Shown here: piece after piece, positions 14 through 53,848 of the stretch
Numbering within the stretch: position 1 is the stretch's first letter
Layout: every line of letters starts with the position of its first letter
Origin: Lachnospiraceae bacterium
GTDB taxonomy: Bacteria; Bacillota; Clostridia; Lachnospirales; Lachnospiraceae
Length of the DNA: 64,000 bases
Assembly (NCBI GenBank): GCA_017622845.1
Contig: JAGAQJ010000006.1
Location: 1-64,000 of the forward strand
Direction of reading: 5' to 3'
The notes under the pieces: generated by a model
Databases searched by the model: none
What the model was told of the DNA's origin: nothing
What the model saw: only the letters and a program-made list of their open reading frames with translations
Translations under genes and position numbers: made by a program

Positions 14-297
14 GTGTACTGACAACTGTTCCATTTTATGGTTTCACTGAACAGAAAATGGCAGATAGTATCCCGTAGACTGCCCGGTGAAGAATGGTGA
101 TATTTTCTTATACGATGATAAATACACAGGAGTAAATTTGCATGGAGGCAAATTTAGGCGAGACGGAGGCATGGACGCCGACTCGAGTCGGCTCCGTCCT
201 CATTAGAAAGTCTTCCTCATCGTATTAGGAAATTCCCATTCGGAATCCATGGCAGCCGGAGGGATACTATCTGCCGTTTTCGTCCGGTTGTCAATAT
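14..297. repeat. Large imperfect inverted-repeat element, strongly folded
   Basis: The two ends are mutually complementary: GAAAATGGCAGATAGTATCCC-like sequence around 55-76 pairs with GGGATACTATCTGCCGTTTTC around 261-281 (one mismatch), and outer arms near 14-24 and 285-295 share TGACAAC/GTTGTCA. TACGATGA near 112-119 pairs with TCATCGTA near 217-224. Inside lie an AAATTTGC/GCAAATTT hairpin and a perfect 16-bp palindrome (177-192, centre CTCGAG) flanked by GACGGAG and CTCCGTC. The outer left end contains GTGTACTGACA, the same string that begins the terminal inverted repeat of the element at 46857-47022. No reading frame is convincing. It is either a MITE-like element or a structured RNA; the fold is seen, the nature is inferred. 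Confidence 0.6.
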
Positions 298-19365: not shown

Positions 19366-19451
19366 TTATCAGATGTACAGAAAAGCAGACTGTATATAAG
19401 GATTGGCGGCAGGCTTTTATGAAAAGCAGCAGTTATCTTTACACGTATGTG

Positions 19452-19594
19452 CTGTCTGCTGATATCTGGAAAAACTCCGTAGAATCATTTTCATTGGTAA
19501 GGAGAAGGAAGCGATGAGAGGCACCGTTGACTGACGACAATGCTGTCAAATGGAAAATTCGGCAAGGAGGTTTGCCTGGATATCAGTCAGACAG
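19452..19594. repeat. Long-hairpin element with conserved core (copy 3, degenerate)
   Basis: CTGTCTGCTGATATCTGG (19452-19469) is complementary to CCTGGATATCAGTCAGACAG (19575-19594) apart from small gaps, and the intervening flanks continue to pair loosely. The apex near 19510-19565 contains GACTGACGACAATGC and GGAAAATTCGGCAAGG, resembling the cores at 53675-53734 and 46912-46971. The open frame of the downstream glycosyltransferase runs into it, one reason to place that start at 19629. Confidence 0.5.
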
Positions 19595-19628
19595 TATACA
19601 AGTACACAAAACAAGGAATGGAATCGAA

Positions 19629-46744: not shown

Positions 46745-47040
46745 AGTAATTGTTCAATACAGTACAATGCACTTGCTGCGGAGTGCGTGAGAATGCGTAA
46801 ATTGCGTTAGGCATCAAGCCACCACGAAGTGGTTTTTCATGACTTGATGCTCGTAACTAGTGTACTGACACGCTCATTTCCGAACTAACAGTGTTGGATA
46901 TTTTGTTACTCTGCAAGGCGGAGGAATGAGGCGATGCGGTGGCATCGTCGATTGATGACAACGCAGCAGATGGCAAAATAGGCAATACTGTTAGTCTGAA
47001 TATGAACGTGTCAGTACACTAGGAGGGTATGGAATCGTTA
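46745..47040. repeat. Dispersed hairpin repeat (copy C), interrupted by another element
   Basis: 46769-46856 is about 90% identical to copy B (4279-4365). After CGTAA the match stops, resuming at 47023 with GAGGGTATGGAATCGTTAC, which matches GAGGGTACTGAATCGTTAC of copy B. The intervening sequence is the TIR element below. No gene lies in this 408-bp gap; the rest (47041-47151) has a GTAAGC/GCTTAC hairpin at 47105-47125 and the next ribosome site. Confidence 0.7.
46857..47022. mobile_element. 166-bp MITE-like element with ~40-bp terminal inverted repeats
   Basis: The left end TGTACTGACACGCTCATTT (after CTAG) is mirrored by the right end TATGAACGTGTCAGTACA (before CTAG). About 34 of 40 positions pair, and pairing continues inward through TATTTTG/CAAAATA. 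The apex (46912-46971) is the 60-nt core also present at 53675-53734. CTAG flanks both ends, and the uninterrupted copy at 4255-4390 shows the empty site, so CTAG (or TA within it) looks like the target duplication. There is no transposase; TA/CTAG targeting is typical of IS630-type transposases, which could mobilise it. Confidence 0.75.
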
Positions 47041-47151
47041 CGGGTAGAAAATAATAGGTAAAGATTTGCATGATAAAAAGTACAGTCTGGGAACAGCAAA
47101 GCATGTAAGCTTAAAAAAGGCTTACAGGACATAGGAAAGGCATGGTGTAGC

Positions 47152-48894
47152 ATGGATATTATTAAGAAACTGCGGTATATTTTGGACAGAAAGCAAAAGA
47201 TTCAGGTCTGCTTTCTGGGGGTTCTCATTTTTATAGGCGGATTACTGGAAACAGTCAGTGTCTCTGCACTTCTTCCGGTTGTATGGGTGCTTCTCGACCC
47301 GCAAAAGGCACAGGAGAATAAATATTTCCAGCTTGCAATGGAGCTTCTGGGTATTCAGGATATACAGCGTTTTATGGTTCCGATGCTCATTCTGCTGATT
47401 GTCATGTATACACTGAAAAATGCATTTCTGCTGTTTATTGTATATGTACAGAATAAATTTATATCATATAACAAAAATAAGCTGATTAGTCAGGTGCTTC
47501 GTGAATTTTTAAACAGGCCCTATGAATTTTATCTGGATGCGGACATTCCGACCGTGTTCCGCCTGACAGACAGCGATATCCCGAATGTGTTTAGCATTTT
47601 GACAGCGTTGATTTCCCTGGTATCTGAGGTGGTTGTATTTGTGCTGCTTTGCGCAGTGCTGATTGCTGTCGACTGGAAGCTGGTGCTTTTTATGGTCGTT
47701 GTGTTTGGTACGGTTTCGCTGCTGATAATGAAGGTGTTAAAGCCGCGTATGAATGTAATCGGCGCGAAGAATCAGGCAATCCAGTCAAAAATTGCAAAGT
47801 GGAGAATTCAGGCAATCTACGGCATTAAAGATGTAAAGGTTCTGCACAGAGAGGCATTTTTTGCGGATAATTATGAGAGCAGCGGAAAAATCGGCGCAGG
47901 CTACAGCAACAGTCACGCTGTCATTACGAATATCCCAAGACCGCTGATAGAGACTGTTTTTATCGCAAGTATCTTAGGGTATATTATTGTATATATCATG
48001 ACAGGTCATGAGACTTCCACCTTAGTGTCAATGCTGACAGCTTTTGCTGCCGCCGCAGTCCGAATGATGCCGAGTGTAAACAGAATTAACACCTATGTAG
48101 CAGATATTTCCTTCTTTAAGCCCTGCCTTGATTATGTATATGAGAACATGAACATGACAGAAATCAGCAAACAGTCAAACCAGACGCTCCTGCCTGTAGA
48201 CGAGTCAAAGACGATGCAGCTTCATGACAAAATCGAGTTAAAGGACATTGTCTATGCTTATCCAAACACGGACAAGCTCATTTTTGACCATGCCGATATG
48301 GTCATTCCTTATGCAAAGTCAATTGGTATTATGGGACCGTCCGGCGCCGGAAAATCGACGATTGTGGATATTTTACTGGGCCTGCTGAAGGTGCAGGAGG
48401 GGAGGATTTTGTGTGACGGTGTGAATGTATTTGACAATTATCCGGCATGGCTTTCACAGATTGGCTATATTCCGCAGTCGATTTATCTGGTGGATGAACC
48501 GATTCGAAATAATATTGCATTTGGTATTGCAGATGCGGAGATTGATGATGACAGAATATGGCAGGTTTTAGAGGAAGCACAGCTAAAGGACTTTATCAAG
48601 ACGCTTCCGGAGGAACTTGACACAGCAATCGGCGACCGCGGTGTGCGCTTATCCGGCGGACAAAGGCAGAGACTTGGCATTGCAAGGGCGTTGTACCATA
48701 ATCCTGAAATTCTTGTGTTTGACGAGGCGACCTCCGCGCTTGACAACGAAACGGAGCAGGCGGTGATGGAAGCAATCAACAGCTTCCACGGAAAGAAAAC
48801 AATGGTTATTATCGCACATCGGTTAAATACGATTGAAAAATGTGATATTATTTATAAGGTAGATGAAGGGAAGATTATGCAGACGACATTGTAG
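47152..48894 (+). CDS. ABC transporter with fused permease and ATPase (PglK/MsbA-like flippase)
   Basis: 580 aa half-transporter. Six helices span about 1-310 (LIFIGGLLETVSVSALLPVV opens the first), and the nucleotide-binding domain follows with Walker A GPSGAGKST (395-403), signature LSGGQRQRLGIARAL, Walker B ILVFDEATSALD and the His switch AHRLNT. The N-terminal pattern and size match PglK, which flips undecaprenyl-diphosphate oligosaccharides. No Wzx-type flippase is seen in the window, so this is the best candidate for exporting the lipid-linked unit. Confidence 0.85.
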   Translation: MDIIKKLRYILDRKQKIQVCFLGVLIFIGGLLETVSVSALLPVVWVLLDPQKAQENKYFQLAMELLGIQDIQRFMVPMLILLIVMYTLKNAFLLFIVYVQNKFISYNKNKLISQVLREFLNRPYEFYLDADIPTVFRLTDSDIPNVFSILTALISLVSEVVVFVLLCAVLIAVDWKLVLFMVVVFGTVSLLIMKVLKPRMNVIGAKNQAIQSKIAKWRIQAIYGIKDVKVLHREAFFADNYESSGKIGAGYSNSHAVITNIPRPLIETVFIASILGYIIVYIMTGHETSTLVSMLTAFAAAAVRMMPSVNRINTYVADISFFKPCLDYVYENMNMTEISKQSNQTLLPVDESKTMQLHDKIELKDIVYAYPNTDKLIFDHADMVIPYAKSIGIMGPSGAGKSTIVDILLGLLKVQEGRILCDGVNVFDNYPAWLSQIGYIPQSIYLVDEPIRNNIAFGIADAEIDDDRIWQVLEEAQLKDFIKTLPEELDTAIGDRGVRLSGGQRQRLGIARALYHNPEILVFDEATSALDNETEQAVMEAINSFHGKKTMVIIAHRLNTIEKCDIIYKVDEGKIMQTTL

Positions 48895-48992
48895 AGCGTT
48901 AATGGCTTCTCCTTGCATGTTTGCCCGAAAGTTTGACGAAAATGCAGATAAAGAGATAATTGAAATGATTTTTAAAAATGTAGGAGAACAAG

Positions 48993-50036
48993 GTGAGTAA
49001 GCAAATCATTGCAACCGAATTATTAAAGGGACAGGGGCTTGGCAACCAGCTGTTTTGTTATATTGCAACCCGCTGCCTTGCACTGGAGCTGGGCTGGGAT
49101 TTTAGCATCTTGAACAGGGAAATTCTTGCCAACAATATCCACAGCAATAAGGGCATGTATTTTATGGACCTGGACTGCGGTCTGGAGCTTCAAAAAGAAG
49201 ATTTCGTGAAGGTTTACCATGAAAAGGAAGACAAGATTTATCTTGGCAATTCCATGCATGATATTGAGCATGGCTGTTATATTACAGGAGTCGACGAAGC
49301 GCTTTGGCATTTTAAGGAGTCGACGCTGATTTATGGAAATCTTCAGGCGGAAGCTTATTTTGGAAAATACCGGGAACAGATTCGGGAATGGATGCGTGTT
49401 AAGCCCGAATATGACAACAACAAGTATTCCAGAGAAAACCTCTGTATCATCAATATCCGCGGCGGCGAGTACACCAGCAATCCCGAGCTGTTTCTGCGGC
49501 GGAAATACTGGCTGGACGCAATGGAGATTATGCGTGAGAAAAGAAGCGATATGGAATTTATGGTTGTAACGGATGATTTGGCAGCAGCAAAGAGGATTCT
49601 GCCGGAGGCAGAGGCGTTTCACTTCGACCTTGCAGGCGACTACACTGTGATTAAAAATGCACACTATCTGATTTTATCCAATTCAACCTTTGCATTTTTT
49701 CCGGCATTTACAAGTGAGACAGCAAAATATATCATAGCGCCGAAATACTGGGCAAGACATAATGTGTCGGACGGCTATTGGGCATCAGAGCAGAATATTT
49801 ACTCGGATTTTGTATATTTGGACAGAAAGGGCAGACTTTTTACAGCGGAGGAATGCCGCAGAGAGCTTGCAGAATATAAAAAGAACGCTAAGAAATATCA
49901 GCAGATAGGAAAGCCCTTGCAGGGTGCAAGGCTGATTGGGGCGAAGCTTCATGCAGGATACCTGATATATAAGGATTTATTTGTCAGAATGCTGCGTTCC
50001 TTAAAGCGCAGAATTTCAGATGCAGTGCGGCGTTAA
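48993..50036 (+). CDS. GT11-like glycosyltransferase, second copy
   Basis: 347 aa. The N-terminal GQGLGNQLFCYIATRCLALELG, central CIINIRGGEY (replacing the usual HxRRxDY), and LILSNSTFAFFPAFTSE fit a divergent GT11/alpha-1,2-fucosyltransferase-like fold. A basic C-terminal extension (RMLRSLKRRISDAVRR) may bind the membrane surface. The start is GTG at 48993 with AGGAGAACAAG upstream. The altered donor motif makes fucose uncertain. Confidence 0.7.
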   Translation: MSKQIIATELLKGQGLGNQLFCYIATRCLALELGWDFSILNREILANNIHSNKGMYFMDLDCGLELQKEDFVKVYHEKEDKIYLGNSMHDIEHGCYITGVDEALWHFKESTLIYGNLQAEAYFGKYREQIREWMRVKPEYDNNKYSRENLCIINIRGGEYTSNPELFLRRKYWLDAMEIMREKRSDMEFMVVTDDLAAAKRILPEAEAFHFDLAGDYTVIKNAHYLILSNSTFAFFPAFTSETAKYIIAPKYWARHNVSDGYWASEQNIYSDFVYLDRKGRLFTAEECRRELAEYKKNAKKYQQIGKPLQGARLIGAKLHAGYLIYKDLFVRMLRSLKRRISDAVRR

Positions 50037-50117
50037 TCAAATATTTTCATGCAATAGGAAATTATCACAAAGGCTGAATAAGGAAAAGTATCAGCATGAG
50101 CCGGGAGGACGGTGCAT

Positions 50118-51680
50118 ATGAAGAAGAAATTTAATATTACAGGGTGCTGCTATCCGGACAGACATTATATGGTTGACATCAGTTCGAAGCTGGAAGAAAT
50201 GAAGGAGTTGGTGGATAACGGAGAATATTTCATTATAAATCGGGCACGTCAATACGGCAAAACGACAACCTTAAAGCAGCTAAAAGGTTATTTAGAGAAT
50301 GATTACAGCATCATATCCATGGATTTCCAGCGATTTAGTTCAGCAGACTTTGAAAAAGAAGCTGCCTTTTGCAATGCTTTTATAGAAGAACTGTTATTAT
50401 TGTTAAAAAACAAAAAGAAAAATAATACCGTTTTTGATACATCACGGCTAGAAGCAGCACTTCATCAGGATTTTAGCTTATCAAGACTTTTTTCACTGCT
50501 GGGTTCAATGTGTGAGACAGCAGTAAAACCGGTCGTACTGATGATAGATGAGGTAGATAGCGCTTCGAATAATCAGGTCTTTTTAGACTTTCTTAGTCAA
50601 TTAAGAAACGGATATCTTCATAGGGACGAAATTTTTACGTTTCAGTCAGTAATATTGGCAGGCGTATATGACATTAAAAATCTGAAATATAAAATCAGAC
50701 TGGAAGAACAGCACATGTATAATAGTCCATGGAATATTGCATCTGATTTTCGAATCGATATGAGCTTTTTTGTTAAGGATATAGCAGGGATGTTAGGGCA
50801 ATATGAGAAGGAACACAACACAGGCATGAGTGTTTCAGAGATTGCACAAATCATATATGATTATACATCAGGTTATCCTTATTTAGTTTCGTATATATGC
50901 AAGCTGATGGACGAGGATATAGCAGGAAACTCCGAATGGACATATGATGGATTGTCAGAGGCAGTAAAGATTATTGTAAAAGGACCCAATATGCTGTATG
51001 ACGATATGATTAAGCATGTATTGGAATATCCGGAGCTGTATACGATGCTGAACAATATATTGTTCAAGGGTGAGAACTATCCGTATCAGGTATATGATAA
51101 ATCCGTGGATATTGGCAGAATGTTTGGATTTGTTGTGGAACGAAACGGTGCAGTTGCGATAGCAAACAGAATCTTTGAAACACAGCTTTATAATTATTTT
51201 ATTATGGTTGAACTGCAGAAAAATAATAAGCAGAGAGAAGCGCTTCCGGATAAAAATCAGTTTATTGAGAATGGCTTTTTAAATATGGATAAGGTGATGC
51301 AGAAATTTTATGAGTATTATACAAGCCTAATCAGTGAAGATGATATTCGCTTTGCAGAGCATCAGGGAAGAAAGCTGTTTCTTATGTTTCTTAGACCGAT
51401 TATTAACGGAACAGGCAATTATTATGTGGAAGACCAAAGCAGAAATAGATACAGAACAGATATTGTAGTAGATTATAGAGGGCAGCAGTATATTATTGAG
51501 CTGAAGATATGGCATGGTGAGGAATATCAACAGAAAGGTGAGATGCAGTTGGTAAATTATCTGAATGCATATCATCAAAAAAGAGGCTATCTGCTAAGCT
51601 TTGCTTTCCATCAGGGCAAGAAAACCGGTGTAAGGGAAGTTCGGATTGAAGATAAGACTATATTGGAAGTGGTAGTATGA
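50118..51680 (+). CDS. AAA-like ATPase fused to a PD-(D/E)XK nuclease domain
   Basis: 520 aa. The N-terminal ATPase has a reduced Walker A, RARQYGKTTTL with K48, and Walker B PVVLMIDEVDSA (about 140); the STAND-like middle region runs to about 330. The C-terminal domain has YRTDIVVDYRGQQYIIELKIWHG, the D-x(n)-E-x-K core of PDDEXK_9/DUF1703 nucleases. Such proteins are abundant in gut Firmicutes and Bacteroidota with unproven function, possibly defence or mobile-element linked. The ATG at 50118 lies at good distance from GGGAGGACG; GTG 50112 is too close. Nothing links it to glycan synthesis except position. Confidence 0.8.
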   Translation: MKKKFNITGCCYPDRHYMVDISSKLEEMKELVDNGEYFIINRARQYGKTTTLKQLKGYLENDYSIISMDFQRFSSADFEKEAAFCNAFIEELLLLLKNKKKNNTVFDTSRLEAALHQDFSLSRLFSLLGSMCETAVKPVVLMIDEVDSASNNQVFLDFLSQLRNGYLHRDEIFTFQSVILAGVYDIKNLKYKIRLEEQHMYNSPWNIASDFRIDMSFFVKDIAGMLGQYEKEHNTGMSVSEIAQIIYDYTSGYPYLVSYICKLMDEDIAGNSEWTYDGLSEAVKIIVKGPNMLYDDMIKHVLEYPELYTMLNNILFKGENYPYQVYDKSVDIGRMFGFVVERNGAVAIANRIFETQLYNYFIMVELQKNNKQREALPDKNQFIENGFLNMDKVMQKFYEYYTSLISEDDIRFAEHQGRKLFLMFLRPIINGTGNYYVEDQSRNRYRTDIVVDYRGQQYIIELKIWHGEEYQQKGEMQLVNYLNAYHQKRGYLLSFAFHQGKKTGVREVRIEDKTILEVVV

Positions 51681-51706
51681 TTGATGAGTAAGGGAGGTGA
51701 TGCCTG

Positions 51707-52807
51707 ATGCAGGAGTGTATTACCTATGAGGTCATGCACGGGGAAAATCCGGTCTGTAAAATATCGACACAGGGAAGCTGTACCATTTATAACGAAGCCT
51801 TCCTGCCCTACCAGCTTTATCTGGAGGAGGGCGAAGATATTGACACCAGAGTGAATAATATTACCAATTTTTATTATTGGTGCGCTACACGTGTTCTGAC
51901 ATTAGACAGACAGTTTGCAAAACAGATATTAAACAGCATCGGAGCTGTGCAGGCAGTCACGGACAAAGATAGAGCGGCGATTGCATTATCCTATCATTGC
52001 CTGACCCTGACAGACATCTATTGGGTGCGCAGAGAAGGGGAAGCGATTACTTTTGCGGAAATCAATCTGTACGATAATCATTTGGAAAATGCATTTGTAG
52101 ACATTTCACTTCGCGGTAAACAGATGACCGTTCAGAACGCACATTTGGTTGCAGATAACGCTTCAACGCCGGGAGTGTTTCCGAAGGCGTGGATTCGGGG
52201 ACAAGATGGCTTTTGGCTGTTAAAGGATGGCGGAGAGCAGGCAGTGCAGAATGAGCTTCTTGCAAGCCGTATCTGTCAGTGCTTTGACTGCCGTCAGGTT
52301 GTATATGAACCGTATCTATGGGAGGATGTGCTTGTATCAAGAAGTAAGCTGATTACAAGCAGGGAATACAGTCTTGCTACCCGGGAGGCTTTTGAAATCT
52401 ATGCACAGAATCAAGGAATACAGCCTATGGAGTATATTTTGAAGCTGGATGCTTATTCCTATTATATGATGAATATATTGGATTATTTGATCGGCAATAC
52501 AGACAGGCATTGGGGCAACTGGGGGTTTCTGATAGATAATCAATGCAATCAGCCAATACGTCTTTACGATTTGATGGATTTTAACCAGTCCTTTTTGTCC
52601 TATGACACAATAGAGGGTGCAGGCTGTCAGACAACGGCGGCATGCCAGAATATCAGCCAGCAGGAAGCGGCGGCACAAGCGGTTCTGCAAATCGGCTGGA
52701 ATCAGAACGCCAAGATACGGGAAGAATGGTTTGCAGGACGCAGGGAAGATTATGATATGCTGCAAAAAAGGATGCAGTATCTAAAGAATCTGGCAGAGAA
52801 TAAATAG
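51707..52807 (+). CDS. HipA-like kinase-domain protein, no HipB partner
   Basis: 366 aa. AWIRGQDGFWLLKDGG gives a candidate ATP-anchoring lysine (about residue 174), LIGNTDRHWGNWGFLID carries the catalytic Asp (D266) and metal-binding Asn (N271), and PIRLYDLMDFNQSF holds the second metal Asp. These are HipA-kinase motifs. A HipB-like DNA-binding partner is absent; the gene starts 26 bp after the AAA/nuclease gene with GGGAGGTGAT upstream. It could be a regulatory Ser/Thr kinase or part of a two-gene unit with its neighbour. The target is unknown. Confidence 0.78.
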   Translation: MQECITYEVMHGENPVCKISTQGSCTIYNEAFLPYQLYLEEGEDIDTRVNNITNFYYWCATRVLTLDRQFAKQILNSIGAVQAVTDKDRAAIALSYHCLTLTDIYWVRREGEAITFAEINLYDNHLENAFVDISLRGKQMTVQNAHLVADNASTPGVFPKAWIRGQDGFWLLKDGGEQAVQNELLASRICQCFDCRQVVYEPYLWEDVLVSRSKLITSREYSLATREAFEIYAQNQGIQPMEYILKLDAYSYYMMNILDYLIGNTDRHWGNWGFLIDNQCNQPIRLYDLMDFNQSFLSYDTIEGAGCQTTAACQNISQQEAAAQAVLQIGWNQNAKIREEWFAGRREDYDMLQKRMQYLKNLAENK

Positions 52808-52864
52808 ACAGAGACAGAATAGAAAAAGACAGAAAATAGAGAGATAGAGGAATGAGTCAGCGGA

Positions 52865-53626
52865 ATGAAGAAGCAAACAGAAAAGCTGAGCTTACCGCAG
52901 GTAACGCTTGTGGCAATGACAAGCGTAAATGTGAAAGCGACAATCAAAGCAATGGAATACAGCATGAGGGGAATCACGTTCGGCGACGCTGTACTGATTA
53001 CCCACAGGAAGCCCTTTGGGCTGCCTAAGAGCATACGTTACAGCCATACAAGCAGGCTGGACAATATAGACGCCTTTAATTATAAGATGGTGTATGAGCT
53101 GGGAGAGCATATCCACACGGATTTTGCACTGATTGTGCATGCAGACGGCTTTGTCGTGCATCCGGAGCTGTGGCGCGATGAGTTTCTTGATTATGATTAC
53201 ATCGGGGCGCCATGGCCGCTGCCGCCTGAGGGCGATACCACCACATACCGCGATATCAATGGAAAAATATGCCGCGTGGGAAACAGTGCCGGTATCCGAA
53301 GCAAGCGTCTGATGGATTTCCCGAAAAAAGCAAATGTTCCATGGGAGGGGGAGTACGCTTATGGAAAAATGTGGTATTATGAAGATGGATTTATCTGCTG
53401 CAAAATCAGGCATTTGCTTGAGGCAGAGGGAATGCGGATTGCACCGCTTGAGGTAGCAAAATATTACAGCCATGAGAAGATGATACCGGAGGTCCAGGGA
53501 ATCACACCCTTCGCTTTTCATAAGTGGGAGGGAACGAACGCGCAGTATCCGAATTTTATCAAACCGACAGTAAAGCAGCGTGCGAAAGCTGCTGCAAGGA
53601 AGCTGCTGCGCAGACGCCCGACATGA
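52865..53626 (+). CDS. DUF5672-family putative glycosyltransferase
   Basis: 253 aa. FALIVHADGFVVHPELWRDEFLDYDYIGAPWP is the DUF5672 signature (the H-x-D metal-binding pattern of a GT-A fold), followed by RVGNSAGIRSKRLM, EDGFICCKIR and ITPFAFHKWEG, all in the expected order. Such proteins are found in glycan loci and predicted to be glycosyltransferases, but I know of no defined reaction. It probably acts in the cytoplasm on the same repeat unit. The C-terminus is highly basic (KAAARKLLRRRPT). Confidence 0.75.
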   Translation: MKKQTEKLSLPQVTLVAMTSVNVKATIKAMEYSMRGITFGDAVLITHRKPFGLPKSIRYSHTSRLDNIDAFNYKMVYELGEHIHTDFALIVHADGFVVHPELWRDEFLDYDYIGAPWPLPPEGDTTTYRDINGKICRVGNSAGIRSKRLMDFPKKANVPWEGEYAYGKMWYYEDGFICCKIRHLLEAEGMRIAPLEVAKYYSHEKMIPEVQGITPFAFHKWEGTNAQYPNFIKPTVKQRAKAAARKLLRRRPT

Positions 53627-53754
53627 AATAAGTTGCCGGAAACAGCCTTGCGTCAAGCCTGCCGCGAAGCAGTTTGCAAGGCGGAGGAATGAGACGATGC
53701 GGTGGAGGCGTCGATTGACGACAACGCAGCAGATAGAAATTCAGGCAAGTTATT
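53627..53754. repeat. Long-hairpin element with conserved core (copy 2)
   Basis: AATAAGTTGCCGGAA (53627-53641), directly after the stop codon, pairs with TTCAGGCAAGTTATT (53740-53754) at 13 of 15 positions. The 60-nt core 53675-53734 matches 46912-46971 at 55 of 60 positions, including GCAAGGCGGAGGAATGAG and GACAACGCAGCAGAT. The arms do not resemble those of the other copy in sequence. It fills most of the gap before the GT17 gene. Confidence 0.65.
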
Positions 53755-53848
53755 GGTCTGGTTATTTACGAAATGTTGTACTGGTGCCTTGTTTTGCCAA
53801 ATATCAACGAGACAAGACACTAGATTTTAGAAAGGTATGGATATGTAA

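What the first reader, a model, noticed from the sequence alone, without database searches (positions are those of the whole stretch)
46912..53734. Hairpin element family: conserved apical core on non-conserved but self-complementary arms
A 60-nt core is 55/60 identical between 46912-46971 and 53675-53734, with a weaker match near 19510-19565. In each copy the sequences flanking the core pair with each other (46857-46900 with 46975-47022; 53627-53641 with 53740-53754; 19452-19469 with 19575-19594), yet the arms of different copies are not alike. Structure kept while sequence changes is what selection on a folded RNA, or a mobile element that replaces its arms, would leave. A fourth, more distant member may be 14-297, which has GGAGGCATG before an apical palindrome.
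Basis: partly seen in the sequence, partly recalled or inferred. Interest (0 to 1): 0.75.

Follow-up and report, generated by a model that had tools for sequence, protein, structure and literature searches.

The report
Folded hairpin jumping DNA across phyla
The repeated hairpins are copies of a small, protein-free jumping element about 165 bases long whose folded shape is kept while its sequence changes, and related copies turn up in gut clostridia, Streptomyces and other bacteria, so it lets us ask what a transposon's fold is for.

Summary
The 46,857-47,022 copy is one of at least 45 model matches in this genome. The family is a ~165-nt, non-coding, rod-shaped hairpin, commonly ending in CTAG...CTAG. 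Its arms differ between subfamilies but covary: 41 of 52 pairs carry double changes in a MAFFT alignment, 51 of 52 in a wider, model-fitted one. It is mobile: a Butyrivibrio insertion is absent from 8 of 10 relatives examined, which read through a single CTAG, so TA is duplicated. The genome holds IS630-family elements whose ends resemble one subfamily's arms. A second group has GG...CC ends and 3-bp direct repeats (14 of 22). The given strand folds better than its complement in 27 of 27 clusters found by core letters alone, and in 47 of 52, 56 of 56 and 14 of 14 in model-found sets. Conserved mismatched loops persist. Streptomyces plasmids, Frigoribacterium and a Nocardiaceae MAG hold copies. 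No copy tested reached an Rfam gathering score. Verdict: MITEs built round a strand-specific fold, RNA more likely than ssDNA; function inferred. The proposed fourth member is TwoAYGGAY, a known family.

The parts
46857..47022 (+). Complete 166-nt hairpin element (subfamily C); CTAG at both ends, TA presumed target duplication
   Evidence: R1 157.2 bits (this copy was in the model's alignment); fold z -10.9; near-identical copies L010, L011 in the same genome
46857..46912 (+). Left arm, pairs with the right arm; outer ~20 nt act as terminal inverted repeat
   Evidence: 0 of 500 random pairs as strong; helices
46913..46972 (+). Conserved core: apical hairpin on a helix of single G-C/A-U pairs alternating with tandem G.A pairs
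   Evidence: Conserved columns; single pairs covary in A4 (helices 6-9); the G.A reading is by inspection
46973..47022 (+). Right arm, with the internal-loop motif (TAGGCAAT here)
   Evidence: motif found, allowing 1 mismatch, in 86 of 98 copies
53637..53784 (+). Chimeric copy: family core and right arm, foreign left arm
   Evidence: R1 69.1 bits with gaps and mismatches in the left arm; fold z -2.0
53790..53823 (+). Inverted left arm of another subfamily (that of L172), also fused to copies L019 and L028
   Evidence: sequence, by inspection
19444..19602 (+). Old, decayed copy with arms still paired
   Evidence: R1 61.0 bits; fold z -4.6

Best explanation
It is a family of non-autonomous DNA transposons (MITEs) whose whole ~165-nt body is one imperfect hairpin. 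Shown: copies insert at CTAG with duplication of TA (or, in a second group, mostly at TWA with a 3-bp duplication), carry matched terminal inverted repeats, and in one subfamily the ends resemble those of an IS630-family element of the same genome. Inferred: the IS630-family transposase cuts and pastes them in trans, using the outer ~20-35 bp. Shown: the body is kept as a fold of one particular strand, with nearly constant length, compensatory changes in the arms and conserved non-Watson-Crick loops. Inferred: the folded strand is RNA made by read-through from neighbouring genes, and a host RNA-binding or RNA-processing factor recognises the conserved rod, for instance so that an inserted copy is trimmed, insulated or tolerated in a transcript. 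Chimeras show that arms can be exchanged, which could let one folded body pair with ends for different transposases.
For: Multicopy: 24 core matches with 0 in the reversed-pattern control; 45 R1 matches, 150 of 1302 first-look candidates scored. Empty site: filled in L193 and L194; L211-L218 (8 of the 10 others examined) read a single CTAG in matching flanks (L218 with only 20 bases on the left); L221 has the same junction but a diverged left flank, L222 reads CCAG. TSD: 14 of 22 GG-type copies have identical direct triplets against 2 complementary ones. Partner: two IS630 transposases (NF033545, 1.2e-67 and 5e-64); the 25 best of 588 arm-to-end comparisons lie 5.6 to 9.6 sd above 60 shuffles of the arm, and those rows are CTAGTACA-type arms of subfamily A and its kin or slight variants of them. 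Fold: 93.2% of cells paired on the MAFFT alignment against 72.3% shuffled and 31-50% slid; 90.9% against 58.3% on 66 matches of the wider set; 89.1% against 55.1% on 22 matches outside the class. Strand: 27 of 27 clusters found by core letters only, arms alone 24 of 27. Length 165 or 166 in 55 of 98 and loop motif in 86 of 98, though correction to a perfect palindrome is seen in L102.
Against: No expression data were available. Copies do not sit in one orientation to genes (37 antisense to both neighbours, 21 sense, 13 convergent, 13 divergent, of 84); the slight antisense excess is not what a cis-acting read-through RNA would predict. In the outer arm the G.U versus A.C contrast is weak (9:7 within clusters), and between clusters the arms give 85:61, p = 0.057, so the outer part may be only a DNA terminal repeat. 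A fold of single-stranded DNA would give the same strand bias. A partner was found for subfamily A only. The structure tested on A2 was predicted from A2, and A2's rows were chosen by hand from copies whose ends pair (60 of 68), which favours the outer helix; A3, A4 and A5 are fitted to the model. In A5 the inner-arm helix 3 is only 54.3% paired. 12 of 98 copies lack the loop motif as searched.
Confidence: 0.72

Rival explanations
1. The fold is used as single-stranded DNA, not RNA: one strand extrudes during replication and the hairpin helps the transposase or a host factor, as in attC or IS200/IS605 ends.
For: The strand bias fits a ssDNA fold as well as RNA; G.T and tandem G.A pairs are also stable in DNA (recalled). 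The slight orientation bias against gene direction (37 versus 21) could reflect a replication-strand preference.
Against: IS630-type DDE transposases act on double-stranded ends (recalled). The conserved body is not near the ends. Replication strand was not tested.
Confidence: 0.2
2. No selection on the fold: the palindromes are terminal repeats plus template-switch correction of quasi-palindromes, which creates compensatory changes by itself.
For: L102 has its internal loop converted to perfect pairing. L019, L028 and L152 are arm chimeras or inversions. Outer arms show little G.U preference within clusters.
Against: Correction would erase the internal loop and the mismatched core helix, yet the loop motif is found in 86 of 98 copies and GA-rich cores recur outside the class. 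Strand-symmetric correction does not explain one strand folding better in 27 of 27 clusters found by core letters only.
Confidence: 0.1
3. A host-serving cis-regulatory RNA, such as a processive antitermination leader (EAR or LoaP type, recalled), because the window is a polysaccharide gene cluster.
For: Among the 10 window proteins scanned are glycosyltransferases, a polysaccharide-deacetylase-like protein and an ABC transporter.
Against: Copies are genome-wide in both orientations to genes. The insertion studied is not conserved between species. No copy in the window reached a gathering score in Rfam.
Confidence: 0.03
4. HEARO/omega RNA or another TnpB-associated guide RNA.
Against: No HEARO match listed in Rfam at permissive thresholds. 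The element has terminal inverted repeats and TA or 3-bp duplications, which IS200/IS605 elements lack (recalled).
Confidence: 0.01

Closest known systems
RUP of Streptococcus pneumoniae (MITE attributed to IS630-Spn1; PMC2229807, passages seen)
   Same: Small, intergenic, many copies, TA target, ends like those of an IS630 of the same genome, transcript said to form stable stem-loops
   Different: RUP is 107 bp in one species; here one folded body of ~165 nt is shared by many subfamilies with different ends and occurs in more than one phylum
Correia/NEMIS elements of Neisseria (PMC2229807, passages)
   Same: MITE of similar size with TA at the ends; RNA stem-loops proposed to act in transcripts, through RNase III
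   Different: No covarying-arm family with a conserved core was described in the passages seen; RNase III action is untested here
TwoAYGGAY RNA, RF01731 (PMC2864571, one table row seen)
   Same: Dispersed in the same genome, 102 matches, 101 over the cut-off; one in the window
   Different: Separate family: no R1 match at 14-297, different core, several copies in inverted pairs
IS630-family insertion sequence in the same genome (L146 1977-3252)
   Same: CTAG ends and end sequence like subfamily A
   Different: Encodes a 388-aa transposase; the loop motif and core were not seen in its ends (inspection)

Membership tests
MITE | Short and without a transposase gene | tested here: met
   159-170 nt in 92 of 98; 13 of 84 copies overlap a longer called ORF, the rest were not flagged as doing so
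MITE | Terminal inverted repeats | tested here: met
   ends pair in 60 of 68 copies found by core letters alone; helix 1 of A2 90.7% paired
MITE | Target-site duplication / empty site | tested here: met
   TA at a CTAG site, clear empty site in 8 of 10 relatives; direct triplets in 14 of 22 GG-type
MITE | High copy number | tested here: met
   45 R1 matches in this genome; 32, many partial, in G595
IS630-mobilised MITE | Ends match an IS630 of the same genome | tested here: met
   Subfamily A only
IS630-mobilised MITE | The same holds for GG-type subfamilies (3-bp duplication) | tested here: inconclusive
   Pattern search of one genome (G009) listed 35 ends; unpaired ends were not followed. 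PF01609 has no match in the own genome, whose copies were CTAG-type as far as seen
IS630-mobilised MITE | Transposition by the transposase in trans | not testable with these tools
   needs an assay
Structured RNA family | Compensatory changes above controls | tested here: met
   0 of 500 shuffles reach the observed values; slid partners far lower
Structured RNA family | Expression as RNA | not testable with these tools
   no reads held
TwoAYGGAY (RF01731) | Reaches the gathering score | tested here: not met
   in the window only 85-248 does, none of the three copies
HEARO / omega RNA | Match to the Rfam model | tested here: not met
   (window and 28 loci)

The most novel reading that the evidence does not exclude
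One folded RNA module, conserved across at least two phyla, survives by hitch-hiking inside the ends of unrelated transposons: it keeps its fold, swaps its arms to suit whichever transposase is present, and pays for its tolerance by acting on the host transcript or a shared host RNA-binding factor.
Probability: 0.35. Interest if true: 0.88.

Novelty: new variant of a known kind. Interest (0 to 1): 0.74.

Why it matters
Bacterial MITEs are usually seen as leftovers of insertion sequences. Here the inside, not the ends, is what is conserved, across species that differ in base composition and, to judge from the target duplications, in transposase type. That makes a testable case for selection on the fold of a selfish element, and a covariance model for it would label many unannotated intergenic repeats. 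It also warns that arm covariation alone does not prove a host RNA gene: a mobile palindrome can give it.

Tried and rejected
Considered and rejected: HEARO/omega RNA and other Rfam families (the matches that overlap elements were microRNA or bacterial small-RNA models far below their gathering scores, which a long hairpin can give by chance); antitermination leaders, because copies are dispersed and lie in either orientation; a phage origin (no match in the phage collection; 0 R1 matches up to E = 0.1 in 15 viral contigs that hold the seed pattern). Led nowhere: a search of the loci fetched by then for matching inverted ends 500-3500 bases apart gave pairs of elements or short palindromes and a Blautia locus with GG-type ends whose listed ORFs include no transposase recognised by eye; a GG-type partner by pattern in G009; Streptomyces and Frigoribacterium arms in other plasmids; a Streptomyces empty site, too diverged on one side to decide. 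Papers: ten searches listed no title or abstract describing this family; only passages of PMC2229807 and PMC2864571 were seen, so absence from print is not established.

One search found 68 distinct copies by core letters, also using loci of that scan that were not listed; 60 pair at both ends, and A2 is 41 of them chosen by hand. Of 108 matches in A3, 97 were kept for (length 150-185, duplicates removed) in 52 clusters; of 66 in A4, 65 and of 22 in A5, 20 were kept. The 98 copies were a list put together by hand, mostly; 84 of them had ORFs on both sides. In one search one GG-type row (L151) is really a CTAG-type copy, and L081 among the other 76 looks GG-type. L080 and L189 are the same copy. 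Whole-genome tallies used stricter filters, under which the own genome showed only 19 and 7 of its 45 copies, so they are lower bounds.
Full report
Observation. The two cores are 55 of 60 identical, and the stated arm pairs are far stronger than same-spaced pairs drawn from the window (0, 2 and 0 of 500 as strong). The 46.9-kb copy folds with z = -10.9, the 19.5-kb copy with -4.6, the 53.6-kb copy with only -2.0. The full element at 46.9 kb is 46857-47022, from CTAG to CTAG.

Copies in the same genome. The core pattern, with up to 3 mismatches, occurs 24 times in the 3.6-Mb assembly and its reversed control 0 times. A covariance model (R1) built from 41 copies of this and other genomes finds 45 matches at E <= 0.01 (150 of 1302 first-look candidates were scored, and the model's E-values are rough). 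That last region holds TwoAYGGAY RNA (RF01731), which has 102 matches in this genome, 101 over the cut-off.

Anatomy. Aligned copies show an outer arm of about 16 pairs, an inner arm of 12 pairs, an internal loop (left about GCAGAAT, right about AGGCAAG), a further stem, and a core GCAAGGCGGAGGAAUGAG / GAUUGACGACAACGC around an apical hairpin. Read antiparallel, the core is single G-C or A-U pairs separated by tandem G.A/A.G mismatches (by inspection). The single pairs themselves covary in the wider set (helices 6 to 9), and in some copies the mismatched helix is replaced by an ordinary one (L172, L173, L205, L206), so the rod rather than the letters seems to matter. Length is nearly fixed: 165 in 36 and 166 in 19 of 98 copies.

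Covariation. On the MAFFT alignment A2, 93.2% of cells form standard pairs against 72.3% in shuffles and 31-50% when partners are slid; 41 of 52 pairs show double changes. A2's rows were chosen from copies whose ends pair, which favours the outer helix, and the structure was predicted from A2 itself. On 66 matches from the same class it is 90.9% against 58.3%, 51 of 52 pairs, and on 22 matches from Streptomyces plasmids and three genomes outside the class 89.1% against 55.1%, 47 of 52, though one inner-arm helix is only 54.3% paired there; these two alignments were fitted to the model and lean towards it. Arms of the same copy pair at -45.3 kcal/mol on average, arms swapped between clusters at -16.1.

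One strand is folded. Among 68 copies found by core letters alone, in 27 clusters, the given strand has lower free energy than its reverse complement in 27 of 27 (mean difference -12.9 kcal/mol), and with the core left out the arms still show it in 24 of 27. Model-found sets give 47 of 52, arms 45 of 52, 56 of 56, and 14 of 14 outside the class; these were found with a model of this strand, which may favour it. G.U pairs exceed A.C mismatches within clusters, 42 to 17, but in the outer arm only 9 to 7, and between clusters the arms give 85 to 61, p = 0.057. The plain reading is that the outermost part is a DNA terminal repeat and the rest is held as a fold.

Mobility. Two genomes share an insertion (L193, L194; the genus is inferred to be Butyrivibrio because genome G134 of the same genus has a contig of the same length as the named B. 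hungatei record behind L080, and the same copy). Of 10 relatives examined, eight (L211-L218, the last with only 20 bases on the left) read straight through CTGCTAAACTAGATATTC, one (L221) has the same junction with a diverged left flank, and one (L222) reads CCAG. So the insertion split a CTAG and duplicated TA. Of 76 copies not sorted as GG-type, CTAG is present at both ends in 40, at the left in 52 and at the right in 44, where chance would give under 1%. GG-type copies (ends like TAAGGAACTGT...ACAGTTCCTAA) carry identical direct triplets in 14 of 22 and complementary ones in 2.

Partner. The same genome holds two IS630-family transposases. The element on contig C33 (L146 1977-3252) runs from CTAGTACATTGAATAATAA to TTTATTTTGTACTAG with a 388-aa transposase. 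Its right end shares CTAGTACA and AATAACTGCC with the right arm of subfamily A, and the end of the second copy shares CTGATACATT with the left arm. The 25 best of 588 arm-to-end comparisons lie 5.6 to 9.6 sd above shuffled arms. Other subfamilies were not matched to a partner.

Arms can be exchanged. In the same genome L019 and L028 join arms of one subfamily to an inverted left arm of another, L152 joins two right halves in opposite directions, and the 53.6-kb copy has a foreign left arm; these are readings by eye. L102 has its internal loop turned into perfect pairing. So template switching and recombination happen, yet the loop motif is found in 86 of 98 copies.

Distribution. Among the named genomes (80 of 114 stretches listed as loci, 42 with the core by the filter) are Roseburia, Blautia, Butyrivibrio, Anaerobium, Coprococcus and Dorea. 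R1 finds the family in 11 of 146 genomes of the order and 25 of 391 of the class, 18 of 223 genera, both lower bounds because the stricter filters used there show only 19 and 7 of the own genome's 45 matches. Outside, BLAST finds the core in 9 Streptomyces plasmid records at 81-84% identity, whole copies score up to 74 bits, and of 24 genomes reached through loci that lie outside the class 3 hold it: Frigoribacterium sp. JB110 with 32 matches, many partial, a Nocardiaceae MAG with 6 and a Longimicrobiales MAG with 1, where a mis-binned contig cannot be excluded. 21 of 24 show none, and 15 viral contigs holding the seed pattern show none.

Function. Copies lie mostly between genes, in either orientation, so a fixed cis-regulatory role is unlikely. 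The best reading is a MITE family whose body is selected as a fold. That the fold is RNA, and that a host factor reads it, is inference. Folding as single-stranded DNA is the main rival; unselected palindrome correction is less likely because it does not keep mismatched loops or favour one strand.

Novelty. MITEs, IS630-driven MITEs (RUP) and MITE transcripts with stem-loops (NEMIS) are known (PMC2229807, passages). Ten paper searches listed nothing on this family (numbers in Tried and rejected). New here is a folded body shared by many subfamilies with different ends and target duplications, in more than one phylum.

Noticed in passing
window 85-248; own genome: TwoAYGGAY RNA (RF01731) has 102 matches in this genome (101 over the cut-off); six pairs examined are inverted neighbours about 100-190 bases apart, made of two different core types; Rfam types it as cis-regulatory, which the copy number does not suggest.
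   Followed up: partly
window ~417-500 and ~46770-46856: A second small hairpin repeat (GCACTTGCTG...CACCACGAAGTGG...) lies beside the element; the motif CACCACGAAGTGG occurs exactly twice, and once more with 1 mismatch, where 0.02 are expected; similar sequence is fused to arms of this family in L144 and L145.
   Followed up: no
L013, L014, L015, L017, L018, L023 (contig ends): Six contig ends of the assembly lie inside subfamily-A copies at nearly the same place, so more copies may be missing.
   Followed up: no
L283 versus L302: The same Streptomyces atratus insertion has, in another strain, an extra apical stretch of about 39 nt in the core; Lachnospiraceae copies L062, L097 and L099 carry other insertions there.
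   Followed up: no
L148, L150: Very short palindromes with the same ends but no body, perhaps collapsed copies.
   Followed up: no
many loci: The CTAG at the element's edge may supply a stop codon: in 12 of 84 copies an ORF end overlaps the element by 4 bases.
   Followed up: no
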